Part shown: positions 5,533-63,048 of the stretch, one piece after another
Layout of the letters: each line of letters begins with the position of its first letter
Position numbering within the stretch: the first letter of the stretch is position 1
Origin: Nitrospira sp.
GTDB lineage: Bacteria; Nitrospirota; Nitrospiria; Nitrospirales; Nitrospiraceae
Length of the DNA: 64,000 nt
Reading direction: 5' to 3'
Assembly (NCBI GenBank): GCA_030653545.1
Contig: JAURZE010000033.1
Location: forward strand, 1-64,000
The notes under the pieces: generated by a model
Databases searched by the model: none
Told to the model about the DNA's origin: nothing
What the model saw: the letters and a program-made list of their open reading frames with translations, nothing else
Translations under genes and position numbers: made by a program

Positions 5533-5992
5533 TTCGTCTCCATGAGGATGAGGGAGAGGAGAGGCTGGGGTTGTGTCATAGGTACGGCCGATACCGTTAA
5601 AAACCGTCTTCCGACACGTATCTGTTCGTTCTCACTGTCGCTCTATCGGACCTTCAGGCGGGACGCTTAATGCGTAAGCGTACGCGGTGAGGCAACGAGG
5701 TCTCCCGCTACTTCAAAGTTTTGCGCCTCAGGTATGATGCTACCCATTGTAGGATGTGGGTTCACGCTAATCTCGACGGATAGAGCACAACGGGTCTACC
5801 CTTAACCGGGGGACAATGGGTTACAGTTGGCTCCTAGAGAGGATTTGAATGAATCGTCACATGATCGCACTTCCTCCGGTCCCCTCCCGTTCGTTCACCG
5901 ACATACCCGCTCACGCTCGTCAAGCATGCGTGTTGCGAATTCTTTGCAACCCCCGATCATTGAATAAGACACGCGCCTGAGGGAAGCTCCCC
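5533..5992. other. Divergent intergenic region, no gene called
   Basis: This 460-bp spacer between the divergent sensor kinase and LuxR-type regulator genes should hold both promoters. A 44-codon plus-strand frame starting at 5849 has a plausible AGAGGA upstream, but its translation shows no recognisable protein character and I do not call it. No hairpin terminator or repeat stands out. Confidence 0.4.
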
Positions 5993-8079: not shown

Positions 8080-10284
8080 ATGAAAAACGTCCACGTCTGC
8101 TTTGTCTGGCACATGCACCAGCCGTACTACACGGACCCCATTGCGGGGACGGCGAGTATGCCCTGGGTGCGCCTCCATGCGACGAAAGCCTATTTCGATA
8201 TGGCATACCTGCTGGAGAAGTTCCCGGCGGTGAAAGCCACGTTTAACTTCACGCCGTCGTTGTTACTCCAGCTTCAGGAGATCGGCAACGGCACCGTGCG
8301 CGACCTGTTCCTCGAACGCGCTCAACGTCCGGCCGCAGAGTTGACGCCGGAGGAACAGGCCTTCCTCATCCGCCATTTCTTCTCAGCCAACTGGGCCACG
8401 ATGGTGCGTCCGTTCGCCCGCTATCACGAACTGCTGGTCAAACGCGGCACCGAGGTCTCTGGACCGGATCTCGCCAAGGTCGCCCGTCAGTTTTCGACAC
8501 AGGATTTTCTGGACCTGCAGGTCTGGCACAACCTGGCCTGGTTCGGGTATGGGCCGCTCCAGCGCTACCCCCGCCTAGGCGCGCTCCGCAACAAGAACCG
8601 CAATTTCACCGAGGACGACAAACACGAAGTCCTCGCGCTGCAGCGGATCGCGATTCAAGAGATTGTCCCCCTCTACCGTCAACTGCTCGACCGGGGTCAG
8701 ATCGAACTCACCACCACACCGTTTTTTCACCCGATCCTGCCGCTCGTCATCGACACGGATATCAATCGCCGCGCGCGTCCCGACCTGCCCCTGCCCTCCC
8801 GGTTTCGCGCGCCGGAAGATGCGGAGACGCAACTCCAGCGGGCCGTCGACTTTCACCGCAAGACCTTTGGCCAGCCGCCGGTCGGGCTCTGGCCGTCAGA
8901 AGGATCCGTCTGCCCCGAACTGCTCCCGCTGGTCCATCACGCCGGGCTCCGCTGGCTGGCGACCGACGAGGGCGTACTCGCCCGCTCGTTCGAATTGAGC
9001 AATCGACCATGGCATCGACACAGCGACCTCTACCAAGCCTACCGCGCGGGGGAGTCCGGCCGAAACGTAACGATGGTCTTTCGCGATCGCGATATTTCCG
9101 ATGCGTTCGGTTTCGTGTACCACAAAACCAATCCGGACTCCGCCGCCGATGACGTGCTCCGCCGGCTCCGAAACATTATTCACAACGCACCGCAGGAACA
9201 GATTCTCATCCCTATCATTCTCGATGGCGAAAATCCCTGGGAGCATTACCATGACGGCGGGGAACACTTCCTCTCGCGCCTCTACCGGGCCTTCACCGCG
9301 CATGAATTGGACCAGGAACACGCTGTTCATTTGACGGCGTCCACCATGTCGGAAGGCCTTGCCGCAGTCCCGCCCACCCAACACCTCCCCGCACTCCATT
9401 CAGGATCCTGGATCAATCAGGACTATAAAATCTGGATTGGGCATCAGGAAGACAACCGCGGCTGGGACCTCCTCGGCCATACCCGCACCCGTCTTGTGGA
9501 AGTCGCCCCGACCTTGCCGGTGGACCGTGCAGAGGCGGCCTGGCAGGAGCTCTATGCCGCCGAGGGCAGCGACTGGTTCTGGTGGTACGGCGACGATTTC
9601 GACACCGACTATAAGCAGGAGTTCGATCGGCTCTTCCGCACCCACTTGCGCAACGTCTGGCTCTTCATGGGCCTCACTCCTCCCGATCGATTGAACCAGC
9701 CGATCTGTGTCATGACCCAGCAGGCTGCGGCAGATCGCATCACCCAGCCGGTCTCGATCCTCACCCCCACCATCGACGGCCTGGTGACGGACTTTTTCGA
9801 ATGGCGCGGGGCCGGAACTATCACGACGCAACCGCCGCTGGGAGCGATGTGGAAGGCCGAGGGACTATTCACTGCGATCTACTTTGGCTGGAGCCAAGAT
9901 CATCTGCTCTTACGACTCGATCCGGATGACGCCGCGCAGCCCCGGCTCAACGGATTGGGGATGGAGCTCACGCTCCACGGGCCTCAGCACAGCTTCCGTC
10001 TTTCCTGCTCGCTTGCCCCGTCCGGACCGGAGTCCTTCACGCTCTTCCAGCAATGTGAAGGAGAAACCTGGCAGGAGATCGGTCCCTATCGTTCGATTTG
10101 TCGCCGGACCATTTTAGAACTGGCGATCCCGATGAAGGACCTCCAGCTTGATGCGGGACAGGAGGTGCGCCTGAGTCTCGTAATTCTCGAACATGGATTG
10201 GAAGTGGCCCGCTACCCGCATCATACGCCGGCCATCCTGACGGCACCGGGGCCAGAATTTGAAGCGGGACTGTGGCGCGTGTAG
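8080..10284 (+). CDS. Glycoside hydrolase family 57 (alpha-amylase/glucanotransferase type)
   Basis: A 734-aa cytoplasmic enzyme with the GH57 N-terminus VCFVWHMHQPYY. The nucleophile region is LWPSEGSVCPEL, with Glu274 the likely catalytic nucleophile. WFWWYGDD at 499-506 is another hallmark. The remaining C-terminal part (about 560-734) looks like a beta-sandwich domain. GH57 enzymes cut or transfer alpha-1,4 glucans and act on glycogen in bacteria. The galT-like gene 78 bp downstream fits storage or sugar-phosphate metabolism. There is no signal peptide. Amylase, 4-alpha-glucanotransferase and branching activity cannot be distinguished by eye. Confidence 0.88.
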   Translation: MKNVHVCFVWHMHQPYYTDPIAGTASMPWVRLHATKAYFDMAYLLEKFPAVKATFNFTPSLLLQLQEIGNGTVRDLFLERAQRPAAELTPEEQAFLIRHFFSANWATMVRPFARYHELLVKRGTEVSGPDLAKVARQFSTQDFLDLQVWHNLAWFGYGPLQRYPRLGALRNKNRNFTEDDKHEVLALQRIAIQEIVPLYRQLLDRGQIELTTTPFFHPILPLVIDTDINRRARPDLPLPSRFRAPEDAETQLQRAVDFHRKTFGQPPVGLWPSEGSVCPELLPLVHHAGLRWLATDEGVLARSFELSNRPWHRHSDLYQAYRAGESGRNVTMVFRDRDISDAFGFVYHKTNPDSAADDVLRRLRNIIHNAPQEQILIPIILDGENPWEHYHDGGEHFLSRLYRAFTAHELDQEHAVHLTASTMSEGLAAVPPTQHLPALHSGSWINQDYKIWIGHQEDNRGWDLLGHTRTRLVEVAPTLPVDRAEAAWQELYAAEGSDWFWWYGDDFDTDYKQEFDRLFRTHLRNVWLFMGLTPPDRLNQPICVMTQQAAADRITQPVSILTPTIDGLVTDFFEWRGAGTITTQPPLGAMWKAEGLFTAIYFGWSQDHLLLRLDPDDAAQPRLNGLGMELTLHGPQHSFRLSCSLAPSGPESFTLFQQCEGETWQEIGPYRSICRRTILELAIPMKDLQLDAGQEVRLSLVILEHGLEVARYPHHTPAILTAPGPEFEAGLWRV

Positions 10285-48275: not shown

Positions 48276-48320
48276 TGGTGAGCCGGCTGGGACTCGAACC
48301 CAGGGCCCTCGCCTTAAAAG
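48276..48320 (-). other. tRNA-Lys(TTT) 3' fragment, island attachment site
   Basis: On the minus strand this 45-nt segment reads as the 3' half of a tRNA: anticodon loop CTTTTAA, 3' anticodon-stem strand GGCGA, variable loop GGGCC, T-arm CTGGG-TTCGAGT-CCCAG, acceptor CCGGCTC, A, CCA. The 5' half is missing, and the bases upstream (GGAA) do not pair with GGCGA. This is the classic displaced 3' end left when an element integrates into the anticodon loop of a tRNA gene. The rebuilt full gene should lie beyond the right edge of the window. Confidence 0.75.
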
Positions 48321-48876: not shown

Positions 48877-48951
48877 GGCTAACGTTCCGCATAACCGGCT
48901 GGCAATGAAGCGCAGCGAAATTACCAGTCCGAGTTGATGCGGTTGTTAGGC
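48877..48951 (-). other. Integron-type attC recombination site
   Basis: Read on the minus strand: GCCTAAC (48951-48945) fits the inverse core RYYYAAC, and GTTAGCC (48883-48877) fits GTTRRRY except at position six. Between them a 16-nt arm (48887-48902, CCGCATAACCGGCTGG) pairs with 48924-48942 over all 16 bases. Three unpaired bases lie in the opposite arm (48928, 48932, 48936), the extrahelical bases that set attC strand polarity. The 75-bp size and a 21-nt variable loop are normal. The site begins 8 bp after the 1180-aa gene's stop, as in a mobile gene cassette. Confidence 0.78.
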
Positions 48952-48958
48952 ATTGAGA

Positions 48959-51900
48959 TTACTCATCTTCCCGGTCTTTGTGATCGCTAATTATTCGTTC
49001 AGCCTCTCGGTCATAGCTGTCTGCTAAGCCTCTCAAGGTAACGGCAAATCGTTGAAAGCCAGCGTTCTCTATTTCCTCGGCTTTTCTTCTGAACTGTTCG
49101 GCTAGTTCCCTCTCCGGCTTTCCAGTTGGGTCAACCCAATGAACACCTCGTGAGTTGTATGTCCCCGTTCTGAAACCGTTGCGTATGTTATCTGCTTCAC
49201 GGTCGTTCAATGCGGCAGCTACAGCACGGCGTATCCACAATCCGTCTGGATCGGGTGGGGTATAAATCAATACTTCGCCAATATTGATGAGTGCAACTTC
49301 CAGGTGGCCGGATTCTGTACAGAATGCCTTTACGCTTTGGAGCCATTCGGTGAAACGCTTTTCGCTAAACGTTCCATCTTTTTGTGTCCCCGGCGGTGTC
49401 TTCCACTCATGCAACAGCCGCCAGGCATTTGTTGCAATTGCCTTTGATTCCTCGGAGGGTTTTATCGACGACTGATCTTCTTTCTTGGATCGGTAGATCA
49501 GTCGAATTACCTCGCAAAAGAACTCGGGGTCATTGGCCAGCCTGCTTTCAAGGAGTTGAGGCGCGGCACCTCTATGACCGTCGAGCAAGGGAACATATGC
49601 CCACTCGACTCTAAAGAGGTCATCCTGGTTAACCGAAGGCTCTGCCTGAAGAAACTTGATCAATTCGACGATGTGGTACCCGTCCATGGCGTAGCTAGGC
49701 TCACCGGAGGAAAGCGCTGCGAGCAACGCTCGAACACATTGATTAGTATCGATCGGCTGCTTGGCATGCCGCATCCTGTTCAGGCAGTTGATTGCCGCGT
49801 GTGGTCTACCATGCTCAATGAGCTTCTCAATAGCAATGTCAAGATCGCCATCGGCCTGATAAGCATTGGCGTCGGTGCGGGTCCAATACTCACTCTCGTG
49901 CATCTGAAGCCACTCAGAAGCGCGATCCCATGCTTCCTTGATAAATGGCAAACAAGCCAGGAATTGTCCTGCTTGCTCTGGCGTCCAATCAGATTTATCG
50001 ATGTCGTCGCACCACTCCCAACCTTTGAGGTGGTAACGCTGCCAGATAAAACCGCTCACCAATGCCTTGCGCTTATTGTCCGGTGTATTCAGAAAGTGAG
50101 GCAAAATGGTTCGCTCAATTGCTGCATCGGCAATAACGCCAAGTGCGTACCCAACCTGACCGGGTGAAGAAGCGGATTCGGCAAATCGGATTACACCCTC
50201 TGCGCCATATCGATGAAAGATTTCCGAAATGGCCGCTTCACGACGCGTGTTGAGTTTCTTTCGCTGCTCTTCCCAATCGCCGTTCTCTTCGTAGAGATCA
50301 AAATCACGATCTGTAAAGAGGTGCTGATATAAATTGAACGGGTTCGTCGGGGCGAGTTGTTCGGCCACTTGTTCAATACGGGTAATCAGTTCGTCGGGCA
50401 ATGCCCATTTAGCATCGAAGAACCGCCGGTGTTTATTTGTGAATTTCGTTAGACGGTCCCAAATCGAAAGTCGTTGCTCTTCAGGAAGTTCTGAAATGGG
50501 CTGGGAGGCAAGAGTCTGGAGCAGTTGATCAAAAGCAGGCTTAGGCAGGTTATCGAAATGGTCAATCAATGCGGAAAGCCGAGCGGTATCTTGGCCTGCG
50601 GCAGCCACCGCAAGCTCCGCGTAAAAAGATGCCTGCTGCCAGTATTCCTGATGCGTAACGCCTTTTCCCCAATCATCGGGGATTGTCTTGCGCCAGCTTG
50701 GTTTGTGCGATCCAAAAGAGGTCTGGTGCTGGCCGGGCAGAAGCTGAATGATCAGATTCCAGGCGATATTCGGCCATTCACTAAGAATTGTCCGCACCGC
50801 CACCTTGCGCTTGTCAACTGATGCCAGCGTTTGCGGCAGCCAGGGCAGCAAAATGGTTGCAAGCGAATTGGATGGGCGATTGGCCCACTGGCCTCCGGGG
50901 TCATGGCTGGCAAGTTCGCCAAGCGCAACACAGACACGAACCAGATATTGGTCATCCCAGGCCAGCCCTTCCAACGCCCAGAGCAGGCCGGTTAAATAAT
51001 TGCCACCGGTGATGCCGTTGCCTTCTTGGGAAAAAAGCTCATCAAAGGGACAGGGTGTCTGACGCATCGCCTTCTCGACCGCATCAAGAAATTCACCGGG
51101 GGCGGCTTCGGCCAGGGTGGGCAGTAAATCGTTCAGGCTTCCCCACAAAAACCAGTCAGCGTTAGTCAGGAGTTCACGTATCACCAGCACGCTGGTTGCT
51201 TCAGCTTTCCCTTGGGAGCAGTTACCGCACGCGTGTGGCTGGCTGCCCAGAATTGCCAAACCATCAGCGATGCCTTTTCGCAATACATGTGAACACTTCA
51301 GCACCTTGCCATGAATGCTTGCCGCGTATCGCTCTTCAACAGGCAGTTCAAAAGAGGGGTCTGGCTCCTTCAGTACGGAAATAGCCTGCGACCTGAATGC
51401 ATCGAGGTTCTGATTAAGGATACGCGATCCCAGCAGGTTCCAAAGCTCGGCTCGATTAACAACTTTCCAGATGCCGTTTTTAAGTGACAACGGGCTATCA
51501 GGGCAATGCAATATTTCCCGCGCCTTCTTTAGCCACTCGTCATAACTGATGCCGAGCAGTTGGGTTATTGCCTCAAGGTCGCATTGACTCTTGTCTTGCC
51601 AAGCGCCAATTAAAACTGCCAAAGCCAGATAGGTAGCGTCCGGGTGCTGAGTCCAATCGGTTTTAGGCTTATCTTGTGGCGCCTTGAACTCCTCAGGAAT
51701 CTCCACCACGGCCTTTTGTTTAAAGGCATCCAGCAGATCGTCCGGCATCTTTCCGGGTGTGATGGTGCCGGCATCCTGATTCCACGTTTGTACGATATCG
51801 ACAACCCTTGACCAGACCCACTGCGGGTACTGCTGCTGGAATTGGGAAATATGGGAATGCAGCAGAGACAGGACAACACCGAACTCGTTACCAAGATCGT

Positions 51901-52501
51901 AGCCGAGTAAATGGAAGGTGTTCAGAAAGGCATAGAGTTCGTCCTTCGAAATATCCTTGCCACCGTTTGCTGTTTTCAGGTGGTACTGAATGACCTCAAG
52001 TTTCTCGGTGCTCTTTGCTGGGCTGAAATTTGCCTGCTGGACGTTTCTGAAAAACTCATCAACGTTCTTGGAGTGCCTCGCCTGGTTCAAAAGCCATTGC
52101 ACAGTGTGTGCATCGGTCGCGCTGAGCGGGCCTGTGATTAGTGCAATAACATCCTTGTTTCTCGTGAACACCTTGGGATTATTGAAATCATTCCACGCAG
52201 CCTGCATCACCTCCCCAAACAGAGCGCTGCCTTGCGTAATGGCAATGGAATGCTTGATCTGCCCGAGAAGTTTCCGCCGTTCCTTACTGTCTACGTTTTC
52301 TACGACAACAATAAGGTCGTCTGTATCGACGCCGTCAATCTTGCCCTGAAGTTTGATTTCCCTAATGGGCCAGCAGGGAAGACAGGGGGCGTGTCCCCCG
52401 GTGAGCATTAACGCGACAAATGACGCCTGTACGTGGGCTTCAAAATGAACCCCGCCGCCTCCAGTGGAGAATGGATTGCTTAGTGTTTTCTTCTTTGCCA
52501 T
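48959..52501 (-). CDS. Putative nuclease/helical-repeat defence protein, 1180 aa
   Basis: A very large cytoplasmic protein. Residues 1-130 begin NPFSTGGGGVHFEAHVQASF and carry E21, D61/D62 (GVDTDDLIVVVE) and Q81-x-K83 (GQIKHS), the D...(E/Q)xK arrangement of DUF4297/Cap4-like PD-(D/E)XK nucleases at the front of anti-phage proteins. From about 280 onward it is a long run of probable helical (ARM/TPR-like) repeats, with no P-loop NTPase motif that I can find. It is flanked by a core site at 52533-52527 and an attC at 48951-48877, as if it were a giant integron cassette. The start lacks a Shine-Dalgarno. Function is inferred and no name is assigned. Confidence 0.72.
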   Translation of the reverse strand: MAKKKTLSNPFSTGGGGVHFEAHVQASFVALMLTGGHAPCLPCWPIREIKLQGKIDGVDTDDLIVVVENVDSKERRKLLGQIKHSIAITQGSALFGEVMQAAWNDFNNPKVFTRNKDVIALITGPLSATDAHTVQWLLNQARHSKNVDEFFRNVQQANFSPAKSTEKLEVIQYHLKTANGGKDISKDELYAFLNTFHLLGYDLGNEFGVVLSLLHSHISQFQQQYPQWVWSRVVDIVQTWNQDAGTITPGKMPDDLLDAFKQKAVVEIPEEFKAPQDKPKTDWTQHPDATYLALAVLIGAWQDKSQCDLEAITQLLGISYDEWLKKAREILHCPDSPLSLKNGIWKVVNRAELWNLLGSRILNQNLDAFRSQAISVLKEPDPSFELPVEERYAASIHGKVLKCSHVLRKGIADGLAILGSQPHACGNCSQGKAEATSVLVIRELLTNADWFLWGSLNDLLPTLAEAAPGEFLDAVEKAMRQTPCPFDELFSQEGNGITGGNYLTGLLWALEGLAWDDQYLVRVCVALGELASHDPGGQWANRPSNSLATILLPWLPQTLASVDKRKVAVRTILSEWPNIAWNLIIQLLPGQHQTSFGSHKPSWRKTIPDDWGKGVTHQEYWQQASFYAELAVAAAGQDTARLSALIDHFDNLPKPAFDQLLQTLASQPISELPEEQRLSIWDRLTKFTNKHRRFFDAKWALPDELITRIEQVAEQLAPTNPFNLYQHLFTDRDFDLYEENGDWEEQRKKLNTRREAAISEIFHRYGAEGVIRFAESASSPGQVGYALGVIADAAIERTILPHFLNTPDNKRKALVSGFIWQRYHLKGWEWCDDIDKSDWTPEQAGQFLACLPFIKEAWDRASEWLQMHESEYWTRTDANAYQADGDLDIAIEKLIEHGRPHAAINCLNRMRHAKQPIDTNQCVRALLAALSSGEPSYAMDGYHIVELIKFLQAEPSVNQDDLFRVEWAYVPLLDGHRGAAPQLLESRLANDPEFFCEVIRLIYRSKKEDQSSIKPSEESKAIATNAWRLLHEWKTPPGTQKDGTFSEKRFTEWLQSVKAFCTESGHLEVALINIGEVLIYTPPDPDGLWIRRAVAAALNDREADNIRNGFRTGTYNSRGVHWVDPTGKPERELAEQFRRKAEEIENAGFQRFAVTLRGLADSYDREAERIISDHKDREDE

Positions 52502-52526
52502 CTACGGCCACTGCCCGGATTCTTAT

Positions 52527-52544
52527 GCCTAACAATGTTTAGGC
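52527..52544 (-). other. Integron core site with partial attC arm
   Basis: On the minus strand GCCTAAAC (52544-52537), ATT, GTTAGGC (52533-52527). GTTAGGC is a perfect GTTRRRY core in the expected place just ahead of the 1180-aa gene. A complete attC arm that would pair with it is not visible within about 150 bp upstream. It may be a truncated attC or a secondary insertion site. Confidence 0.5.
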
Positions 52545-52666
52545 GGACCCATATAAGAACCAGATCTGTCATGTTCTATCCGCGTAACACACCTTTAATG
52601 ATCGTGAACAATATCTCATCATCGACGTGGGATACGGAGTGCTTTTGCGGTTGGCTCCGTCCTTCA

Positions 52667-55600
52667 TTACTGACTCGTCATCCCATAGACCATGTCACCG
52701 ATGAAACGGCGGAAGGACTCGTTCTCTACGAACTGCTTGTAGACCTGCGTGTCGTCCTTCAAGAGGTGCTGCATGACCTTGGCCAGCGCCTGATCATGGG
52801 CCATACGCGCGGTGTGCGGCGTGTTCTCTTTTGCATTCTGGTAGGCCGCATCGGCAGCGACCTTGGGAGCGATGTCGTCGCGGATACGCTTCGCGACCCG
52901 GTCGGTATCGGTGAACAGCGTACCGAACTGCTCATTAAACGTCTTGAGGATGTTGCTCAAACGGTCAAGTTCAGGCTCGGCCTTGTGCCCGTGAGCGTCC
53001 GTCGGGACCGGTTCAATCTCTGCATCACTATCCGCTAAGGCAATCTTCATCGTCGCCTTCTTCTCTACGCGGTAGCTGTCCATGTCGATGGCATCGAGAA
53101 TGCCTTTGGCGAGATCCTCTTCCTGCGGCGCGGGCAACTTGGGCACCAGCAGATTGAGTAGGATCGAGAGCTTCTCCCATTCCGGATTGCTGTAGGGAAT
53201 GACCGACGAAAGGAAGCTGTACGTGCGGCAGAACACCTTGGCCTTACCTTTAAAGCCAACCTGGCCGTCCTCGTCGAGTTTACTCACATAAACGGCCACG
53301 CATGCATCAAGGATCGGATCGAGTTGGTCGCGCTCGGCATCACCCAGGAACAACGTCACCACTTGCTTTACCTGCTCCGGTGAATAGACCTGGGCCGCAT
53401 CCAGCGCACCCTTCAGGTCGTGCAGCTTGTTGGGATCAGTCTCCTCAGCAAGCAGCGTGGTGCGGTAGTAGTCCTGGAAAGCAAAGGTGATCGCCTCGCT
53501 ATTGTTCTGGAAGTCGAGCACGAAGCAGTCGTGCTTTTGCGGGTGCGCGCGGTTGAGTCTCGACAAGGTCTGCACGGCTTTGATGCCCGAAAGCGGCTTG
53601 TCCACGTACATCGTGTGCAGCAACGGCTCGTCATAGCCAGTCTGGAACTTGTCGGCGCAGATCAGGAAGCGATACGGGTCAGTCTGAATCTTTGACGCGA
53701 TCTCACTACTCGGAAACCCATTGAGCGAAGCCTCGCTCACCTTGGTTCCGCCGTACTCGTGCTCGCCCGAGAAAGCGACAATCGCCTGATACGGACTCTT
53801 GCGTTCCACCAGATACGCCTTAAACGCGTGGAAGTATTGAATGGCTCGCTCGATGCCACTCGTGACGACCATTGCTCGCGCTTGCCCGCCGATTTTCCCG
53901 GCCGCCATCACCTGCTCGTGGAAATGATCCACCATGATCTCGGCCTTGAGTTTGATCGCGTGATCGTGGCTCTCTACATAGCGACGAAGTTTCTTCTGTG
54001 CCTTCTTGGTATCGAACTCCGGATCGTCCTCCGTCTTCTTGACGAGCTTGTAGTAGCTGTCCACCGGCGTATAGGCCTTGAGCACATCGAGAATAAACCG
54101 CTCCTCAATGGCCTGCTTCATCGTGTAGCAGTGGAAGGGCCGGTGCTTGACCTTGCCCTCGGCATCCGGTGGCAGCGGCTCGCCGAACATCTCCAACGTT
54201 TTGTTCTTGGGGGTGGCGGTAAAGGCGAAGTAGCTGGCGTTGGTCAGCATCTTGCGCGCTGCCATGCGCTTGGCGAGCGCCTCATTGACGAGATCTTCCG
54301 GGTCGGTCCCCTCCTCTTCGTCACCCTTGGCATCGCCGAGCGCCTGGCTCATCGCTGCGGAGGTCTTTCCGCCCTGGCTTGAGTGCGCCTCGTCAATGAC
54401 GATGGCGAAGCGCTTGCTACCCTCGGTGGCGATCTCGTCGAGGATATGGGGGAACTTCTGCACCGTCGAGACGATGATCTTCTTCCCCTCCTGAATGAAT
54501 TTACGCAGATCACCAGAATCCTTGGCATGGCCGACCGTCGCGCCCACCTGCATGAACTGCTTGATAGTCGTCTGGATCTGGTCGTCGAGCAGGCGCCGGT
54601 CGGTGACGACGATGACCGAGTCGAAGACTTCCTTATCCTCGCGCTTCAGGCCGATAAGCTGGTGCGAAAGCCAGGCAATGGAATTGGACTTGCCGCTTCC
54701 CGCCGAATGCTGGATCAGGTAGCGCTTACCCGCCCCGTGGGCACGAACATCGGCCAGTGCCTGCCGCACCACACCAAGTTGATGGTAGCGCGGCCATACC
54801 TGTCTTTTCTTTTTTCTGCCGGTGCGCGGGTCCTTCTCCTCGACGATCTGTGCGTAGTTCTCGAGGATGTTGGTTAGGCCTGTTGGAGTAAGGATCTCTT
54901 TCCAGAGGTAATCGGTTTTGAGGCCGTGCGGATTGGGTGGGTTCCCCGCGCCGTCAAGGTAGCCCTTGTTGAAGGGCAGGAACCATGAGCCCTTCCCCCT
55001 AAGCTCAGTGCACATCTGTACTTCGCTGTCGTCCACGGCAAAGTGCACCACGCAGCGGCCAAACTCAAAGAGCCGCTCGCGTTGGTCACGGTCGCGCTTG
55101 TACTGTTCAACGGCATCCGCAACGGTCTGCTTGGTGAGGCTATTCTTCAGCTCGAAAGTCGCAATTGGCAGGCCGTTGATGAACAGGCCCAAGTCGAGCG
55201 CACGACGCGTCTCGTCCATGCTATAGGCGAGCTGCCGTGTGATCGAGAAGCGGTTCAGCGCATGCAGCGCCTCAGCCTTGGCGTTGCCCGGTGAGGGCGT
55301 GCCGTAGAACAGATCAAAGTGCACCGGCCCATGCTCCACGCCTTTGCGCAGTACATCGATGACGCCACGCTTGCCAATCTCGGCGGAAATCCGGGCGAGA
55401 AACTTGAGGCGGTTGATGTCCTTGGGATCGTTGGAGTCAGCCATCGCCAGTTTCTTGAATGCCTCGGGCTGGGTGGCGCGCAGGAAGGCGAAGAGCTGCG
55501 GCACATCGAGCGCGTGGGCGCGGTCATAGTCCTGCGCGCTGCCTGCGATATAGCCAGTCCCGCCGTAAGGCGCGAGTCGTTCAGCAGCCATGTTCGGCGC

Positions 55601-55678
55601 TACGGCGAGACCGTCCGTGCCGGTCATGTACCGTACGATGAGCGTTTCGAGACCCTTTTCGCTCGTGTCAGTGGTCAC
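52667..55678 (-). CDS. hsdR: Type I restriction endonuclease subunit R
   Basis: A 1003-aa motor-nuclease. The N-terminal PD-(D/E)XK region includes PIATFELKNSLTKQTVADAV near residue 172. The DEAD-like translocase has Walker A HSAGSGKSNSIAWL near 325 and Walker B VIDEAHSSQGG near 430, followed by helicase domain 2 (DKFQTGYDEPLLHTMYVDKPLSG). The C-terminal helical region should bind HsdM. The start is GTG 55678 with AGAGG six bases upstream. It cuts unmodified DNA after translocation and works with the hsdM and hsdS genes upstream. Confidence 0.93.
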   Translation of the reverse strand: MTTDTSEKGLETLIVRYMTGTDGLAVAPNMAAERLAPYGGTGYIAGSAQDYDRAHALDVPQLFAFLRATQPEAFKKLAMADSNDPKDINRLKFLARISAEIGKRGVIDVLRKGVEHGPVHFDLFYGTPSPGNAKAEALHALNRFSITRQLAYSMDETRRALDLGLFINGLPIATFELKNSLTKQTVADAVEQYKRDRDQRERLFEFGRCVVHFAVDDSEVQMCTELRGKGSWFLPFNKGYLDGAGNPPNPHGLKTDYLWKEILTPTGLTNILENYAQIVEEKDPRTGRKKKRQVWPRYHQLGVVRQALADVRAHGAGKRYLIQHSAGSGKSNSIAWLSHQLIGLKREDKEVFDSVIVVTDRRLLDDQIQTTIKQFMQVGATVGHAKDSGDLRKFIQEGKKIIVSTVQKFPHILDEIATEGSKRFAIVIDEAHSSQGGKTSAAMSQALGDAKGDEEEGTDPEDLVNEALAKRMAARKMLTNASYFAFTATPKNKTLEMFGEPLPPDAEGKVKHRPFHCYTMKQAIEERFILDVLKAYTPVDSYYKLVKKTEDDPEFDTKKAQKKLRRYVESHDHAIKLKAEIMVDHFHEQVMAAGKIGGQARAMVVTSGIERAIQYFHAFKAYLVERKSPYQAIVAFSGEHEYGGTKVSEASLNGFPSSEIASKIQTDPYRFLICADKFQTGYDEPLLHTMYVDKPLSGIKAVQTLSRLNRAHPQKHDCFVLDFQNNSEAITFAFQDYYRTTLLAEETDPNKLHDLKGALDAAQVYSPEQVKQVVTLFLGDAERDQLDPILDACVAVYVSKLDEDGQVGFKGKAKVFCRTYSFLSSVIPYSNPEWEKLSILLNLLVPKLPAPQEEDLAKGILDAIDMDSYRVEKKATMKIALADSDAEIEPVPTDAHGHKAEPELDRLSNILKTFNEQFGTLFTDTDRVAKRIRDDIAPKVAADAAYQNAKENTPHTARMAHDQALAKVMQHLLKDDTQVYKQFVENESFRRFIGDMVYGMTSQ

Positions 55679-55686
55679 ATGGAACC

Positions 55687-55797
55687 TCTAATCAAGTAGC
55701 CATCAAGTACCAAGGATTCTCTTACCTATTGATTTTAAAGGAGCTAGCCTTTAATTCCGCTTACTACCCTCCATTCTAATCAAGCATCCATCAAGTA
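55687..55797. repeat. 23-bp direct repeats bracketing the AlbA_2-hsdR gap
   Basis: Copy one is 55687-55709 and copy two is 55775-55797, identical at 21 of 23 positions (TCTAATCAAG...CCATCAAGTA). Copy two overlaps the AlbA_2 stop and copy one sits just before the hsdR GTG. Each unit itself contains two CATCAAG/AATCAAG halves. This suggests a duplication or an insertion scar between the two genes. Confidence 0.6.
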
Positions 55798-57281
55798 ACA
55801 CGATTTCGGTCCGGTCCGGCCCAAACCGGTATATAGCGCATGAGTTTAGGAGCCGCATCCGCATCATAGGCGACGATCACTCCCGCATCGACCGCCTCTC
55901 GGATGAGCCGTGAAGCCACAGCGAGATTCTGCGGTTCAATCCCAAACCGCTCGCGCACCGAAGTGTTGGTCAAATACTCCCGGTTCACAAAACGAAGACA
56001 CGCATGAAGATAAACAGCGCGCACCCGATCCGCCTTGTCCATTTGCGAAAGTGGGCGCGGCGCAAACAGCACGACACGCGTATGGTCCCCAGTAACTTCA
56101 GCCAATGGAGCGGGCAGTTGATACAGTTCCGTTTGAAAGACCACCTTATCCCAGCCGCTTCCACGCTCCTCACAAATGCCGATACGTCGCATCAGCGAAG
56201 CCAGCACCTCATTGCGTGACTTAGGTGGAGTATCAACAAAGCGCTGCGTATCAACCAGCGGCGCACCCGGGTTCGTGATTTCAATACGATCCTCGAACAT
56301 CTCCACCATCGGACCTACGCCGGTAGCAAAGAAGTCCTGATGGATGAGGGCATTCGCCACCAACTCACGGACCGCAAGCTCCGGAAACCTCGGTACCGTC
56401 CTGCGCAGTGCTTGTTCAATCACCTCATTTGAGGGAAGGACGCCGTTGATAAACCCGATCAGCCCTTCAAAATCAGAGGCATAACCTTTGATTCCGACGT
56501 GCTCTTTCAGTGTCTCAACGCGACTTGCGCCTCGGTACTGGATTACCCGAATCGCCTTACGCCGGAGCGAATGAAAATCTTCCAGTCCCTTGGCAAAGAG
56601 GATGGCTCCGAGATTGGTGATATTCCAACCACCGGCATCGCACGGGCAAACCAGGCTATCGTCGGCTAACGCCTTGAGGATGCCATCTCGATTCTCCGGC
56701 AACGGAAGCTTGAGCAAGTGGAAGTAGGCCGGGTAATCAAGGAGCTGCAACACCTCGTCAGCGGGAATGTGTTCGGCAGCAATCCCCTTCTCAAACGGCA
56801 TGCAATCGAATATACGCCAGAGGGCACGTTCCCGTTCAGGGAAGTCCTTGAGCCGTTTCTTGTATGACCCCACCCGGATAAACTCTTGTCCCTGGAACTG
56901 CACGGGATGCCGAAAGGCTCGTTCAATTTCCAGCAGCACAATCGATCGCCCATCCACCGTCACCTCGTAAAAGCGAAAGTGGATTTTGGGTGTCAGCAGC
57001 TTCAAGAGCCAGCTTTCCAGCTCCTCGTTGCCGACTTTTGCCGCACGAGGATTGAACCGCGTGCCAACGATGGCGTGATCCCCATCTGCCACACCCCACA
57101 CCAGATAGGCAGACGCTTTCCCTACAAGCGCCGCCGAATTACTCAAGGCTGACAGTAATTCGCCGATCTCATTCGGCTCTGCATCGTCTACTTTGAACTC
57201 TAGCCACTCGGTCTCGTGCGACAATTTACACAGCTCACGCACAAGACTCACCAGATAGCCAGCAGGCCGGTCCGTACTCAC
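55791..57281 (-). CDS. AlbA_2 (Schlafen-like) domain protein in a type I R-M operon
   Basis: A 496-aa protein. Residues about 18-120 match the AlbA_2/Slfn domain (ETEWLEFKVDDAEPNEIGELLSALSNSAAL...YLVWGVADGDHAIVGT). A HATPase_c_4-type region follows (about 290-370, FPELAVRELVANALIHQDF and EDRIEITNPGAP), and a winged helix lies near the C-terminus. Such proteins often sit inside type I restriction loci as accessory or regulatory factors of unknown function. The start is GTG overlapping the hsdS stop (GTGA), so they are translationally coupled. hsdR begins 112 bp downstream. Confidence 0.8.
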   Translation of the reverse strand: MSTDRPAGYLVSLVRELCKLSHETEWLEFKVDDAEPNEIGELLSALSNSAALVGKASAYLVWGVADGDHAIVGTRFNPRAAKVGNEELESWLLKLLTPKIHFRFYEVTVDGRSIVLLEIERAFRHPVQFQGQEFIRVGSYKKRLKDFPERERALWRIFDCMPFEKGIAAEHIPADEVLQLLDYPAYFHLLKLPLPENRDGILKALADDSLVCPCDAGGWNITNLGAILFAKGLEDFHSLRRKAIRVIQYRGASRVETLKEHVGIKGYASDFEGLIGFINGVLPSNEVIEQALRRTVPRFPELAVRELVANALIHQDFFATGVGPMVEMFEDRIEITNPGAPLVDTQRFVDTPPKSRNEVLASLMRRIGICEERGSGWDKVVFQTELYQLPAPLAEVTGDHTRVVLFAPRPLSQMDKADRVRAVYLHACLRFVNREYLTNTSVRERFGIEPQNLAVASRLIREAVDAGVIVAYDADAAPKLMRYIPVWAGPDRNRVT

Positions 57282-58699
57282 GTCTCAGCCTCCTCGGACG
57301 CTGCGTCGAGGGCCGTCTCTTCAATCTCTTCGGCACCTTCAACAAGAGATTCTAGGTCATCCGATTCTTCAGGCAACCGCGCCGCCGCCTCTTGCACATC
57401 GAGCTTGCCGGTTACCACATCAGCAACGAGGCGGGTGCGATATTCACGAAGGAGTTCGATCTCCCGTTCGAGACGAGAGATAGCGGAGTGCAGTGCACGT
57501 GTCTCGGTCTCGATACCGGCGACCAGCCTCACCTGATCATCCATCGGTGGCAGAAGCACATACAGGCATCGCACATCATCGAGGGTGAGACCGACCTTCG
57601 TTCCACCGTTCGTCTTCAGTCGGCATTGGTCCTTTCCAAACTGCGAGAGAAGCCCATACGCGACCCATCGCGGAACGGACCGCTCCGGCCGTAGCCGAAT
57701 CAACGCGGTGTGCTGGTTAACGTACGCCTCGCCAAGACCATCCGAAACAACTCCCACCGCCCCAATCTGGGCGGTGATAGAAAGCAGCAGGTCATTAGGC
57801 CTCGCTCGTGTTCTCTCTCCCTCCGCTCCAGTGGGCGGTGTCACGTAGCTGATGTGCTTCAGTCGCAGGTCGATCGAGGTAGTCGAGATGTTCCCAATTC
57901 GCAGGAAGACGAACCCATCGTCTGCATAATAGCGAGCCCATCCACGGGAGCCACTCGTAACGAACCGACAAAGGGACTTGAGCCTCCGCACCTCCCAATG
58001 CTGCGGAATGTCGCCGAGCCAGGGGATGCCGGAGGGCTTGAGGGGGGCGGAGGGGTCGAGGCCGCGGGTGACGGCGCGATGGATGATGGCCTGCTTCTGC
58101 TCGTTGAGCAGCGCGATCACCTTCCGCTTCGCCAAGATCGCTCGCTCCAGCCGCCCGTTCGCCCAGTCCAGAAACCGCACAATCGCCGTCTGCTCTTCGG
58201 GCGAGGGGACGAGCACGGGAATCTCTCGCATCCCAGGGATAGACAAATCCCACTGACCGACACGCACACCATCGGAAGCCTGTCCAAAGTGTGCGACGTA
58301 GGGTTTGCTGCGAAGCAACCTCTGACCAAAAGCGTGGTTGGCGATACGGAAGTCGAAGACATAGTAGGCTGGGCTGACGATGCCATCGCATGGTGCGATC
58401 CCCATTGAGCCCTGCCACGCCTTCATCTTGTTGATCACGAGATTGCCGGCACGAGCCACCTTGTAGTTGCTCAGGTCGTCAGGGATAACATTGTGATTCT
58501 CATCTACATCCGTGAGTGAGCGAACAAACACACCTTTCTCCCGAGCAACCGACAACAGCGGTAAGTCGGCCCGATTGCGTTCTGCTCGCTTCGAGATGAG
58601 CGAACGGAGGTTTCTCACCTCCCACTTCGCCGGGACAACGCCAAGCCACTTTGATCCCGACTCCTTGTATTCCGAATACGGCTTGAGGTTAGCGATCAT
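57278..58699 (-). CDS. hsdS: Type I restriction specificity subunit S
   Basis: A 473-aa protein made of two target-recognition domains and two conserved helices. The pseudo-repeats are clear: WLGVVPAKWEVRNLRSLI at the start and WLGDIPQHWEVRRLKSLC near residue 225, each followed by a TRD. The conserved coiled-coil segments are EEQTAIVRFLDWANGRLERAI and DDQVRLVAGIETETRALHSAI. It sets the DNA recognition sequence for HsdM/HsdR. It is one base downstream of the DUF262 gene and overlaps the AlbA_2 gene. Confidence 0.93.
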   Translation of the reverse strand: MIANLKPYSEYKESGSKWLGVVPAKWEVRNLRSLISKRAERNRADLPLLSVAREKGVFVRSLTDVDENHNVIPDDLSNYKVARAGNLVINKMKAWQGSMGIAPCDGIVSPAYYVFDFRIANHAFGQRLLRSKPYVAHFGQASDGVRVGQWDLSIPGMREIPVLVPSPEEQTAIVRFLDWANGRLERAILAKRKVIALLNEQKQAIIHRAVTRGLDPSAPLKPSGIPWLGDIPQHWEVRRLKSLCRFVTSGSRGWARYYADDGFVFLRIGNISTTSIDLRLKHISYVTPPTGAEGERTRARPNDLLLSITAQIGAVGVVSDGLGEAYVNQHTALIRLRPERSVPRWVAYGLLSQFGKDQCRLKTNGGTKVGLTLDDVRCLYVLLPPMDDQVRLVAGIETETRALHSAISRLEREIELLREYRTRLVADVVTGKLDVQEAAARLPEESDDLESLVEGAEEIEETALDAASEEAET

Positions 58700-58700
58700 C

Positions 58701-60497
58701 TCAGAGTGCCTCGAACCAGGTTTTAATTTTTTGCGCCATCAGCTTGCGACGCTCCTCCAGGAAGTTGTCATAGACAGGAATCTTATCCTCAAGCATTGAC
58801 GTCGGAATACAGTGCATATCGAGATTCGCACGAAGATCTTTCCCTTCGGTAATCCCGCCATACTTCTTTTTCCCACCCTCGCACTGCTTGACTAGTTCCC
58901 GAAAGTACTGGTCTGGAGGGGTGTCGCTAATGGCAATGTTGATCTCGCTCTGCGCCAACACGAAGTTCGCGATCTGGTTGTATCGCCCCTTCGAGAGACC
59001 CTGCTTCTTGAGATAATTGCGCGGATAAATATGGTGCACATCACTGCGGTTCATCAGAAGGGCCTGTACCGTGATGTCACGCGACAGGAATCCCTTGTCG
59101 CCCAGTTTGGCTTGCGCCGCCTTATAAGCAAGAAAGTAAGGACTCTGGCCGGAAGAGGTATCCATGAGTTGCGGCAGCATGCCAGTCCAAAAGCTCGCAG
59201 GCAGTTCCGTTTCGATAACAGAATTGGCATAGGCAACCAAGCCGCGTGCCTCGACCTGACGGATATCGACATCGAAGGCCGTCTCTGGACTGCCGCTGTA
59301 GCGTCCGCGCAGGATGGACATCACATACCACCGGCCTACCAATCTTTCTAAATCGGCAGCGGGCAAGCCATCAGCCCGGCCGCGAAGATAAAGAATGTAG
59401 GCAAAATTGACGGCGTTCTGCCCGCCGAACAGATCGCTCGTGACAAAGCCAGCTGAACGCAGGATCATCGTAAAACGGTCAAAATGCGTTTTGTTGATGA
59501 AGCGCAAAATCCCCTGCTTGAGCCGCGCGAACGATGCCTCGGCAATCGCGTCCTCATACTGCCGGGTCTCGAAGTTGCGCCCTGAAAGGAGCGCCACGAG
59601 GTCCGCTAGCTTTCCGCGTCCGAACTCCGCGGTGAACGCCACACGTAGCATGTCAGTATAGGTGGGGTCGTAAATGTCGTCGTTCACATCTTTGAGCCAC
59701 CGCATCTGCTGGAAGAACTCGGAGGCCGCGAACGCTTTGTCACCCTTTTCAATACGTCCGAGGAAATCCGGCGCAACAGCAAGATGGCAGAAATAGTCGA
59801 TCGCCTTGCGCAGCATGTTACCGCCGTACGTCTCGTTGGCGGCGATCTTCGACATGGCAAAATCGGCCTGCGATAACTCGGCTCCGGCGGAGTTCACGCG
59901 GATGAAAATCTCAGTGACGGTTTCGATGTCGAGGTCTTCGGCGAGTTCGATCAAGCCGACATGATTATTGATAATCTTGCCGAGCCGTTGGAGCACCTTG
60001 CCCACCTGTTTGCGGTCGGCAGTAGGGTTCTTCGCAACATAGTCTTCCGTCAGCTCAATTAAGTCGGCTTCTGGTGCGAACACCGCAGCGACATCCTCGA
60101 TCCAAGCAACGTCTTTGCGAATGGCAGGATTCGCAACCTCGAACTTCTCAGTTTGCGGATGAAAGGCGATCCGGATGCGGACGGTTTCATAGTCTTTGGT
60201 CAACACTTCCCGCCCGAGCAAACCCGCCATAAGTGCTGTGACTCGCTGTTGTCCATCGATAAGAATGCGCTTGCCTGCCGATGAGGTGCCGTCCTTGAGC
60301 TTAACCGTAGGGTTTCGCCACGCGATCAGGTAGCCAACGGGATATCCTTGATACAGTGAGTCGAGCAAATTACGCACCTTCGTCGGCTCCCACACGAACG
60401 GACGCTGAATTTCAGGGATTGCAATCTCGCCAGACTTGACCCATGTGAGCAGTGTCTCAATGGGATGGGGCGTGACCGAATAGCGTTGTGTGGACAT
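58701..60497 (-). CDS. DUF262 protein with C-terminal HNH nuclease domain (GmrSD-like)
   Basis: A 598-aa protein. The N-terminus has [33 protein letters not shown] and the DUF262 signature DGQQRVTAL near residue 80, which binds and hydrolyses NTP in GmrS-type restriction proteins. The C-terminal [14 protein letters not shown] near residue 485 is an HNH-type (DUF1524-like) nuclease motif. Such proteins act as modification-dependent (type IV) or phosphorothioate-linked restriction factors. Here it sits between hsdM and hsdS with almost no spacing, so it may be a second defence layer inside the operon. Confidence 0.82.
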
Positions 60498-60725
60498 CTA
60501 TTTCCTCGCCTTTACAGATCGTCCCTCTGTTTCCATTAGACCGGAGAACCGCTTCCAACCAATTCGTTTCTTGTTGATGGAGTTGCCTTTTGGCAGCCAC
60601 TCAATGTTGCCCTTACTGATTAGCAAGGTCCCTAGTTTCTCGCCATTCCGCTTCACCGTGATTGCGAGGTCCTTATGACCAATCACTTTGGTGTCGACTC
60701 TCGCACGGACTTGGTGTTGAGCCAT
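60498..60725 (-). CDS. 75-aa conserved-looking protein between hsdM and DUF262
   Basis: A small basic protein starting at ATG 60725 behind an excellent GAGGAGGGGG, with its stop directly adjacent to the DUF262 start. The sequence (KDLAITVKRNGEKLGTLLISKGNIEWLPKG) is a short beta-rich fold I have seen near restriction genes but cannot name. The tight packing argues that it is a real gene and part of the operon. Confidence 0.65.
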   Translation of the reverse strand: MAQHQVRARVDTKVIGHKDLAITVKRNGEKLGTLLISKGNIEWLPKGNSINKKRIGWKRFSGLMETEGRSVKARK

Positions 60726-60741
60726 ACCCCCTCCTCAGGAA

Positions 60742-63036
60742 TCATTTGCCAATGATCTCAGAAAGTAGTCCTTCTGTTTCCTTTTCCAGCGCGAGGATGT
60801 CAGCTTGAATTTCTTCTAGCGTGCGCAGTGGCTGCGGCTTGTAAAAGTGCCGCGTAAAGCTAACCTCGTAGCCGATCTTGGTGGCGTCCTCCTTGATCCA
60901 GGCATCGGACGTATAGGGCAGCACCTCGCGTCGGATAAAGGCTTCAATGCCGCCGTCCTCTAAGAGCGGCACCTGCTCGGTATCGCGCAGATCGGAGTCG
61001 GGCTCGTATTCGACAATGGCGGGCTTGCCGTCCACCGTGGCATCGAACAGACCGTGAAGCGGATCAGCTTTGGCCTTGCCTGCCTTGTGGACTTTGGCGA
61101 CGACGGGAGGCGCGGTTTCGACGCGCCAACTCACGGCCTTGAAGATCTGCTTGAGGTCGGCGGCGGCGAGTTTAATGTCGGCCTTCTTGAGCGCAGCCTC
61201 GACACGGTCGCGGAAGACGTTGTGGTCCTCAAAGAGCTGATCGCCCAACGCCTCGCGTAGCTTCGTGGCGACTTCGACCAGGCGGCCATCGCGCTCCCAG
61301 GTTTTGGAATCGAGCAGTTTCTTTTTCTTCTTCTCGGGCAGCCCCTTCTTCGTTCCGCCGCCCTCTTCATCATCACCATCTTCCTCGTCGCTGCCCCACT
61401 CGGCCAGACGCTTCTCCAGCTTTGTCGAGATTTTAGAGAATTTTGTGAAGAGAGAGTCGCCGAACTCCTCGTAGAGTGTGGCACGGAGATCTTCATCGCC
61501 GGCTGCAAATCTCAGCGTCTCGATGGCCTTGAGCGTGAGCTGGCTGTGCAGACGAAGCGGGCGCTCGACGGTGACCTTCCAGTAGCCGAAGGCGGCGTTG
61601 GGGAAGATCTTCGACTCTGGCGTCTCCTTGAAGTCGAGGAAAGTGCGGCTAATGCGCTCGATGTCCTCGGCCGAGAGTTCGCAGTTCTTCTTGCCGAGGT
61701 TCTTGCGCAGCGGCTTGAACCACTGAGTCGCGTCGATAAGGTGCACCTGTCCCTTTCGATGGGCAGGCTTTTTGTTCGACAGCACCCAGATGTAAGTGGC
61801 TATGCCGGTATTGTAGAAGAGATTGAGCGGCAGCGCGACGATGGCTTCGAGCCAATCGTTTTCGATGATCCAGCGGCGGATGTTGCTCTCGCCCTGGCCG
61901 GCATCGCCTGTGAAGAGCGACGAGCCGTTGTGAACTTCGGCAATGCGGCTGCCGAGCGCGGACTTGGCATTCATCTTTGACGCCATGTTGGCCAGAAAGA
62001 GCATCTGGCCGTCGCTAGAGCGTGTGACGAGCGACAGCTCCTCGCCCTTGTGCATCACTTTGAAGCGAGGGTCACGCATGCCGTCCTTACCGCCCATCGC
62101 TTCGAGATCCTTCTTCCAGCTCTTGCCATAGGGCGGATTGGAGAGCATGAAGTCGAACTCCTGCGCCTGGAATGCGTCGTGCGAAAGCGTGGACCATTCC
62201 GCGCCGCCGAAGATGTGGTCGGCACTCTCACCCTCGCCTTTGAGAAGCATATCCGCCTTGCAGACAGCGTATGTCTCGGGATTGATCTCCTGCCCATAGA
62301 GCAAACAGGTGATCTGCTGCTTGCGCTTCTTGCCGATTGCCGTGAGCGTCTCTTCCCCCACGGTGAGCATGCCGCCGGTGCCACAGGCGCAGTCGTAAAG
62401 CAGATACGTGCCAGACTTAAGCTGGTTCTCGATCGGCAGGAACACGAGGTTTGCCATCAAATGCACAGCATCACGCGGAGTCCAGTGCTGTCCAGCTTCC
62501 TCGTTGTTGTCTTCATTGAACTTGAGGACCAACTCCTCGAATACCGTGCCCATCGCATGGTTGTCGATACCGGCCGGGGAGAGATCGATGTCGGGATCGA
62601 GGAACTTGTTGATGAGCGTGGCTAGAGCATCACCTTTAGACAGCGTTTTCAGCTGATTGTGAAACTTGAAATTCTCGAGGATGTCCTGAACGTTTTGCGA
62701 GAAGCCGTTAAGATAGTCCTCGAAGTCCGCGAGTAGCTGCTGCTGGTTTCCTCGGGACTTGAGATCGCGCAGAGTGAACTTCGATGTGTTGTAAAAAGCC
62801 TGGCCAGCAGCCTCGCAGAGCGCCGCACGCTGCTCGGTGATGCGTGCCTTATCAAGCATCTTCTTGGTGTCCAGCACCTTTTGCTTGGTCGGCTCGAGCA
62901 CCGCGTCCATGCGCCGGATGACGCACATCGGCAAGATCACGTCCGGGTACTTGCCCCGCTTGAACAAATCGCGGAGGACATCATCGGCGATACCCCAGAT
63001 AAACGAGACGATCTTGTTATGAGTTGCTTGGTCCAC
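60742..63036 (-). CDS. hsdM: Type I restriction-modification DNA methyltransferase subunit M
   Basis: A 764-aa N6-adenine methyltransferase. It opens MDQATHNKIVSFIWGIADD, the common HsdM start. The GTG at 63036 has AAAGGAG about 11 bases upstream, whereas the GTG at 63048 overlaps that Shine-Dalgarno. SAM motif I is YDCACGTGGML near 217, and motif IV NPPY (MLSNPPYGKSW) near 300 marks adenine methylation. An acidic/Lys-rich linker (about 515-555) precedes the C-terminal helical region. It modifies the sites chosen by hsdS. It is the first gene of the operon. Its upstream gap (63049-63330) shows no gene. Confidence 0.93.
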   Translation of the reverse strand: MDQATHNKIVSFIWGIADDVLRDLFKRGKYPDVILPMCVIRRMDAVLEPTKQKVLDTKKMLDKARITEQRAALCEAAGQAFYNTSKFTLRDLKSRGNQQQLLADFEDYLNGFSQNVQDILENFKFHNQLKTLSKGDALATLINKFLDPDIDLSPAGIDNHAMGTVFEELVLKFNEDNNEEAGQHWTPRDAVHLMANLVFLPIENQLKSGTYLLYDCACGTGGMLTVGEETLTAIGKKRKQQITCLLYGQEINPETYAVCKADMLLKGEGESADHIFGGAEWSTLSHDAFQAQEFDFMLSNPPYGKSWKKDLEAMGGKDGMRDPRFKVMHKGEELSLVTRSSDGQMLFLANMASKMNAKSALGSRIAEVHNGSSLFTGDAGQGESNIRRWIIENDWLEAIVALPLNLFYNTGIATYIWVLSNKKPAHRKGQVHLIDATQWFKPLRKNLGKKNCELSAEDIERISRTFLDFKETPESKIFPNAAFGYWKVTVERPLRLHSQLTLKAIETLRFAAGDEDLRATLYEEFGDSLFTKFSKISTKLEKRLAEWGSDEEDGDDEEGGGTKKGLPEKKKKKLLDSKTWERDGRLVEVATKLREALGDQLFEDHNVFRDRVEAALKKADIKLAAADLKQIFKAVSWRVETAPPVVAKVHKAGKAKADPLHGLFDATVDGKPAIVEYEPDSDLRDTEQVPLLEDGGIEAFIRREVLPYTSDAWIKEDATKIGYEVSFTRHFYKPQPLRTLEEIQADILALEKETEGLLSEIIGK

Positions 63037-63048
63037 TAGGGGGTGCAC

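What the first reader, a model, noticed from the sequence alone, without database searches (positions are those of the whole stretch)
48877..52533. The 1180-aa gene may be a giant integron cassette of about 3.65 kb
A core site GTTAGGC precedes the gene by 25 bases and a full attC begins 8 bases after its stop. This is the exact geometry of a mobile gene cassette, yet typical cassettes are 0.5-1 kb. If true, very large defence genes can move through integrons.
Basis: partly seen in the sequence, partly recalled or inferred. Interest (0 to 1): 0.7.

Follow-up and report, generated by a model that had tools for sequence, protein, structure and literature searches.

The report
Giant integron cassette with nuclease gene
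A 3.65-kilobase stretch of this bacterial chromosome is a real but unusually large integron gene cassette; its single gene encodes a big protein with a nuclease-like front end of the kind used in anti-phage defence, and the same cassette occurs in other bacterial phyla.

Summary
On the minus strand, core site GTTAGGC (52533-52527), a 1180-codon gene (52501-48959) and a folded attC (48951-48877) make a 3,650-bp cassette. The attC ranks first of 369 candidates on its strand. Upstream, the 101 nt ending in GTTAGGC are a repeat found across the host genus; in 22 of 25 copies similarity stops within or next to the core site and another gene follows. In one genome the repeat lies directly behind intI, like an attI. 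Downstream lies a second cassette, present in a relative behind a different site. Cassettes of 3.64-3.67 kb with this gene occur in Desulfogranum, Aliidiomarina (between two complete attC sites), Microbulbifer, and Verrucomicrobia and Planctomycetota bins. But 23 of 40 copies show no cassette boundary, several in restriction-modification loci, so the gene also moves otherwise. The protein joins an Avs3/Cap4/LmuA-type nuclease fold (conserved E, DD, QxK) to a long helical solenoid; Pfam, PADLOC and NCBIfam do not describe it. The host keeps only an integrase remnant; the cassette probably now travels on a tRNA-Lys island. Defence function is inferred, not shown.

The parts
48883..52532 (-). integron gene cassette, 3,650 bp from the TT of the 5' core site to the G of the attC R' site
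   Evidence: homologous cassettes of 3,637-3,666 bp in L010, L014, L016, L017, L024, L032 (three of these measured from mutated core sites)
52527..52533 (-). 5' core site GTTAGGC (crossover G^TT)
   Evidence: homology between 10 copies starts here (79% inside, 25% outside)
48959..52501 (-). cassette gene, 1180 aa: Cap4/Avs3-like PD-(D/E)xK nuclease domain (about 17-261) plus helical solenoid (about 290-1180)
   Evidence: no family hit; sub-cutoff only
48877..48951 (-). attC site, 75 bp (R'' GCCTAAC, R' GTTAGCC), imperfect hairpin with extrahelical bases
52527..52627 (-). 3' 101 nt of an attI-type repeat of the host genus, cut off on its 5' side
   Evidence: matches in 65 of 146 related genomes; 22 of 25 copies end at the core site; directly behind intI in one genome
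48672..48882 (-). start of a second cassette (58-aa ORF 48848-48672), truncated before any recognisable attC
   Evidence: 86-87% identical to G017:C2:420880-420696, similarity beginning at CGTTAGCC
48276..48320 (-). 45-nt 3' repeat of tRNA-Lys, end of the genomic island that carries the cassette
   Evidence: intact tRNA-Lys at contig position 70,723-70,798
52667..55678 (-). HsdR of a type I restriction system, the gene upstream of the cassette
55791..63048 (-). rest of the type I restriction locus: Schlafen/AlbA_2 protein, HsdS, GmrSD_N protein, HsdM

Best explanation
The segment is a genuine integron gene cassette, about 3.65 kb, with one 1180-codon gene. SHOWN by sequence: a core site and attC in cassette geometry, homology that starts at the core site, different neighbours on both sides in relatives, and equal-sized cassettes in other phyla. 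INFERRED: an integron integrase recombined attC against an attI-type site of the host genus. The integron was then cut off from its integrase, and the piece (truncated attI, big cassette, start of a second cassette) now lies at the end of a tRNA-Lys genomic island beside a type I restriction locus. It probably moves with that island rather than by itself. INFERRED function: a stand-alone anti-phage protein whose long helical solenoid senses infection and whose Cap4/Avs3-type nuclease domain then cuts DNA.
For: attC: rank 1 of 369 on its strand, z -3.78. Homology boundary at the core site, 79% against 25% in 10 copies. Exact GTTRRRY 29-37 nt before the start in 10 of 32 copies, my count, against about 0.3 expected. 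attC on both sides in Aliidiomarina and Verrucomicrobia. Cassette lengths 3,637-3,666 bp. Left neighbour is a genus repeat: 22 of 25 copies stop at query positions 141-145, the core site being 138-144; identity falls from 72% to 26%. It sits behind intI in G083. Right neighbour is a cassette in G017. intI over cut-off in 8 of 79 genus genomes. Tree: cassette and non-cassette copies interleave across phyla. Island: tRNA-Lys repeats and integrase. Nuclease fold: Avs3 Z 13.3, Cap4 12.8, LmuA 12.5; E21, D61, D62, Q81, K83 invariant in 28 proteins.
Against: 23 of 40 copies show neither core site nor attC; several lie in restriction loci, and the nearest relative by protein (L023, 89%) is one of these. 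No literally empty site was found. The host genome has only a 67-residue intI remnant. The window's left site is only the 3' 101 nt of the repeat. G017's site before the second cassette is degenerate and my strict scans missed it. The solenoid has no specific structural match, only generic HEAT/Arm-like repeats. No phage or biochemical test exists here.
Confidence: 0.87

Rival explanations
1. The gene is a vertically kept accessory gene of a type I restriction locus, and the attC-like sequences beside it are chance or unrelated repeats.
For: It lies 166 nt behind hsdR in the window. In L023 it sits between hsdS and hsdR, in L026 right behind hsdS, in L025 near hsdR, and in L029 and L043 behind Eco57I-type methylases. 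23 of 40 copies have no cassette boundary.
Against: HsdR relatives at 91-93% (L063, L064) are not followed by the gene in the stretches fetched, and similarity to the window ends at the hsdR stop. Homology between copies starts at GTT. Complete attC sites flank the gene in Aliidiomarina.
Confidence: 0.05
2. The cassette was inserted by an integron integrase into a secondary (attG-like) site next to hsdR, not into an integron.
For: No intI in the neighbourhood. The joined flanks read GCCTAAACATTG|TTAGCC, a simple two-box site.
Against: The left flank is a genus-wide repeat that lies directly behind intI in G083 and whose copies end at the core site. The right flank is itself a cassette.
Confidence: 0.08
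3. The protein is not a defence effector but a DNA-repair or housekeeping nuclease that happens to be mobile.
For: No functional test. No PADLOC or Pfam hit.
Against: The best structural matches of the nuclease domain, Z 10.4-13.3, are all defence effectors: Avs3, Cap4, LmuA, HerA-DUF, Hachiman. Patchy distribution across phyla. Restriction-locus neighbours. Module swapping with HTH, HetE-N and TPR partners.
Confidence: 0.2

Closest known systems
Integron gene cassettes and CALIN (clusters of attC sites lacking an integrase; PMC9024848, passages read)
   Same: core site, single ORF, attC right behind the stop, homology breaking at G^TT, second cassette following
   Different: 3.65 kb for one ORF. 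PMC5371416 (sections read) gives a median CDS of 362 bp in sedentary and 575 bp in mobile integrons; PMC3087341 (passages read) used 1,860 bp, the longest in its cassette set, as its limit.
Integrons as stores of anti-phage genes (Darracq 2025, Kieffer 2025, Getz 2025: only their titles seen in reference lists of PMC12444791 and PMC13064858)
   Same: a defence-type gene carried as an integron cassette
   Different: very large nuclease-solenoid protein, without a PADLOC match, in an unnamed host genus; whether those papers contain cassettes of this size could not be checked
Avs3, Cap4 (CBASS), LmuA (Lamassu), HerA-DUF4297: Cap4-type nuclease domains
   Same: N-terminal nuclease fold, Z 11.6-13.3, with conserved E...DD...QxK
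   Different: no Pfam match at E<=1 in the window's domain; the rest is a helical solenoid with no Pfam match, so no ATPase, SAVED or STAND domain was detected
Delta-attI-type cassettes (PMC12901181, passages read)
   Same: attI sequence next to cassette genes in arrays
   Different: here an attI-type repeat recurs in many copies through a whole chromosomal genus

Membership tests
integron gene cassette | attC immediately downstream of the gene: R''/R' boxes and a foldable imperfect hairpin | tested here: met
integron gene cassette | 5' boundary at a GTTRRRY core site where homology between copies begins | tested here: met
   (10 copies selected for a TAG-type core; 79% inside, 25% outside)
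integron gene cassette | same unit found between attC sites in another array | tested here: met
   L032 Aliidiomarina and L017 Verrucomicrobia
integron gene cassette | neighbours differ exactly at G^TT on both sides | tested here: met
   left; right:
integron gene cassette | excision or insertion by an integron integrase | not testable with these tools
   needs an experiment; synthetic cassettes with about 3 kb of insert are excised according to PMC5371416
complete integron | intact intI next to attI and the array | tested here: not met
   own genome has only an intI remnant, C16:11409-11609, none over the TIGR02249 cut-off
CALIN | two or more attC sites without intI | tested here: inconclusive
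   one clear attC plus a truncated attI-type site and a second cassette without a recognisable attC
Cap4/DUF4297-type nuclease superfamily | Cap4-like PD-(D/E)xK fold | tested here: met
   on predicted models (pLDDT 84 and 80.5)
Cap4/DUF4297-type nuclease superfamily | conserved catalytic residues | tested here: met
   E21, D61, D62, Q81, K83 invariant in 28 proteins; the role of each residue is inferred
Cap4/DUF4297-type nuclease superfamily | profile match to the Pfam family | tested here: not met
   no relevant Pfam hit in 31 N-terminal domains at E<=1
Avs (STAND NTPase defence proteins) | central STAND NTPase domain | tested here: inconclusive
   no Pfam hit at E<=0.01 in the full protein; the model shows helices after the nuclease domain

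The most novel reading that the evidence does not exclude
Integrons move intact immune proteins of more than 1,000 residues between phyla: one nuclease-solenoid gene circulates as a 3.65-kb cassette behind several divergent attC sites, all joined at the same point 6-10 nt behind the stop, and also moves into restriction loci. In the host genus an attI-type repeat ending in GTTAGGC has multiplied into arrays in which single genes lie between successive copies, so that attI-like sites do the job normally done by attC.
Probability: 0.3. Interest if true: 0.78.

Novelty: new variant of a known kind. Interest (0 to 1): 0.62.

Why it matters
Cassette genes are generally short, and defence genes in integrons are known mainly as small ones (the latter from recall). 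A single-gene cassette twice the longest in one published cassette set, found at nearly the same length in several phyla, shows that size is not a hard limit to what integrons spread, and points to an undescribed family of nuclease-solenoid proteins. It also makes a question testable: does the integrase still excise such a large cassette, and do large defence genes pass between integron arrays and restriction loci?

Tried and rejected
Rejected: chance attC; simple restriction-locus accessory gene; insertion at a random secondary site. Led nowhere: strict regular-expression scans for attC missed real sites in known arrays and in G017, so I used a looser scoring made here, which is ad hoc and not IntegronFinder. 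No covariance model was built. BLAST of the window's restriction proteins against the flanks of homologues found little; Pfam on chosen neighbours did better (20 chosen proteins). Plasmid search for the second cassette: none. PDB sequence search: nothing significant. Whole-model Foldseek gave only generic HEAT/Arm solenoids. The tree bootstrap had not settled, so only the interleaving is used.

A literally empty site was not found. The joined flanks are a reconstruction, not an observation. Whether cassettes of 3.6 kb or more are already in print was searched with no such report seen; the three 2025 integron-defence papers were not read, so novelty of size is not claimed as certain. Between attC types, identity behind R'' averages 63% against a shuffled baseline of 58%; one pair, window and L017, reaches 75%, so 'unrelated attC' is firm only for L014 against the rest.
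Full report
OBSERVATION. Everything reads on the minus strand. GTTAGGC lies at 52533-52527, the ATG of an 1180-codon gene at 52501, its TAA stop at 48961-48959, and GCCTAAC...GTTAGCC at 48951-48877. From G^TT to G^TT the unit is 3,650 bp. Its bottom strand folds into the imperfect hairpin expected of attC at -17.5 kcal/mol, z = -3.78, 0 of 200 shuffles as good.

HOMOLOGUES AS CASSETTES. A scan of genome contigs with six peptide patterns gave 39 loci, many of them 80-89% identical in protein across phyla. With the window that is 40 copies. By my reading: 9 of 40 have a recognisable attC 6-10 nt behind the stop (window, L010, L014, L016, L017, L022, L024, L031, L032); 4 of 40 have only its first box or a degenerate form (L011, L013, L035, L038); 4 of 40 have only an upstream core site or a near copy (L018, L019, L046, L048); 23 of 40 have neither, some being fragments. 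In Aliidiomarina shirensis (L032) the gene lies between complete attC sites at 5886-5970 and 9551-9631 in a run of same-strand ORFs with further attC-like sites nearby. That genome has no intI over the cut-off, so the run is an array without a recognised integrase. A Verrucomicrobia contig (L017) also has attC on both sides, the downstream one with a changed R' box. Cassette lengths are 3650 (window), 3661, 3646, 3649, 3637, 3666 and 3666 bp; for L014, L016 and L024 the 5' core site is mutated and was placed by homology. L014 and L017 are short contigs of metagenome bins, so their hosts are less certain.

BOUNDARIES. Among 10 copies chosen for a TAG-type core, mean pairwise identity is 79% over the first 14 nt inside the core site and 25% over the 40 nt outside (45 pairs). 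An exact GTTRRRY 29-37 nt before the start is seen in 10 of the 32 copies printed (my count); nine such positions at 1/1024 each predict about 0.3.

LEFT NEIGHBOUR. The 101 nt that end at the window's core site recur in 65 of 146 related genomes, often several times. Of 25 copies in the stretches I fetched (a selection rich in strong and clustered hits), 22 lose similarity at query positions 141-145, the core site being 138-144. Identity is 72% over the last 40 nt of the repeat and 26% over the next 40. In G083 the repeat lies directly behind intI, and in G100 behind an intI fragment. In 4 of 6 intI loci of the genus a core-like site stands between about 160 and 195 nt behind the intI stop, in the direction of the gene, the layout that PMC3607928 (passages read) reports for Treponema. 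I therefore read the repeat as an attI-type site. In the window it is cut off on its 5' side at 52627, between hsdR and the cassette.

RIGHT NEIGHBOUR. The sequence behind the attC (a 58-aa ORF) is 86-87% identical to G017:C2 in the same genus. Similarity begins at CGTTAGCC, and in G017 a different site precedes it, in a region with another attC-like site.

ISLAND. Relatives share the core chromosome only up to 48320. There a 45-nt 3' end of tRNA-Lys is repeated; the intact tRNA-Lys lies at contig position 70,723-70,798, next to a 392-aa phage-type integrase. The cassette thus sits at one end of a ~22.5-kb tRNA-Lys island with a type I restriction locus. The host genome keeps only a 67-residue intI remnant, so present mobility by integrase would need one from outside.

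OTHER CONTEXTS. In L023 the gene lies between hsdS and hsdR, in L026 behind hsdS, in L025 an hsdR lies upstream, and in L029 and L043 it follows an Eco57I-type methylase. A protein tree of 29 copies interleaves cassette, trace and non-cassette copies (bootstrap not settled). It does not refute the cassette, because the cassette copies have the boundaries, but it shows that the gene also spreads without integrons.

PROTEIN. No Pfam or PADLOC family matches; the NCBIfam hit is far under its cut-off. The model (pLDDT 84) has an alpha/beta domain (17-261) and a helical remainder. The N-terminal domain folded alone (pLDDT 80.5) matches Avs3 Z 13.3 (rmsd 4.8, 207 aligned), Cap4 12.8 (4.5, 195), LmuA 12.5 (3.9, 204), HerA-DUF 11.6 and Hachiman 10.6; the first restriction enzyme comes at 6.6. 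E21, D61, D62, Q81 and K83 are invariant in 28 proteins. Parts recombine with other modules: the C-terminal part is fused behind HTH domains or encoded beside a HetE-N protein, and the N-terminal part is fused to TPRs. The likely mechanism, a solenoid that senses infection and releases a DNA nuclease, is inferred.

LITERATURE. PMC5371416 (two sections and passages read): median CDS 362 bp in sedentary and 575 bp in mobile integrons; synthetic cassettes with about 3,000 bp of insert are excised, at lower frequency for some sites. PMC3087341 (passages): upper limit 1,860 bp, from the longest cassette in its set. PMC9024848 (passages): two CALIN in Nitrospira inopinata; I did not establish that the host is a Nitrospira. 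The 2025 papers on integrons as defence stores were seen only as titles in reference lists.

VERDICT. It is a large variant of a known kind of mobile unit carrying an undescribed, probably defensive, protein.

Noticed in passing
window 52527-52627 and L127-L140: attI-type repeat ending in GTTAGGC in 65 of 146 related genomes, often several copies per contig; wherever a fetched stretch held more than one copy, all were on the same strand, 0.9-9 kb apart, with genes between in those inspected.
   Followed up: partly
L072 404-1768, 3467-4933, 6538-7716 (contig C33 63.4-70.7 kb): The integrase end of the tRNA-Lys island holds a Rep_trans replication gene and a Zot-family gene, which suggests a filamentous-phage-like element sharing the island with the restriction locus and the cassette.
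   Followed up: no
L113 11409-11860 (own contig C16): Integron integrase remnant preceded by a copy of the same attI-type repeat.
   Followed up: partly
L032 4516-12757: The Aliidiomarina array around the giant cassette also carries PIN-like, TIR, DUF4238 and MtlR-family genes.
   Followed up: partly
L049, L051, L121, L122, L123: Module swapping: the C-terminal solenoid occurs behind HTH domains or beside a HetE-N protein; the nuclease domain occurs fused to TPRs.
   Followed up: partly
L105, L110: The first gene behind intI and its attI looks by eye like a TIR-domain gene (ISYKRAE, ISYTRSDQ) in two integrons of the genus; not tested with a profile.
   Followed up: no
window 55791-60497: The type I restriction locus holds a Schlafen/AlbA_2 protein and a GmrSD_N protein between hsdM and hsdR.
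   Followed up: no
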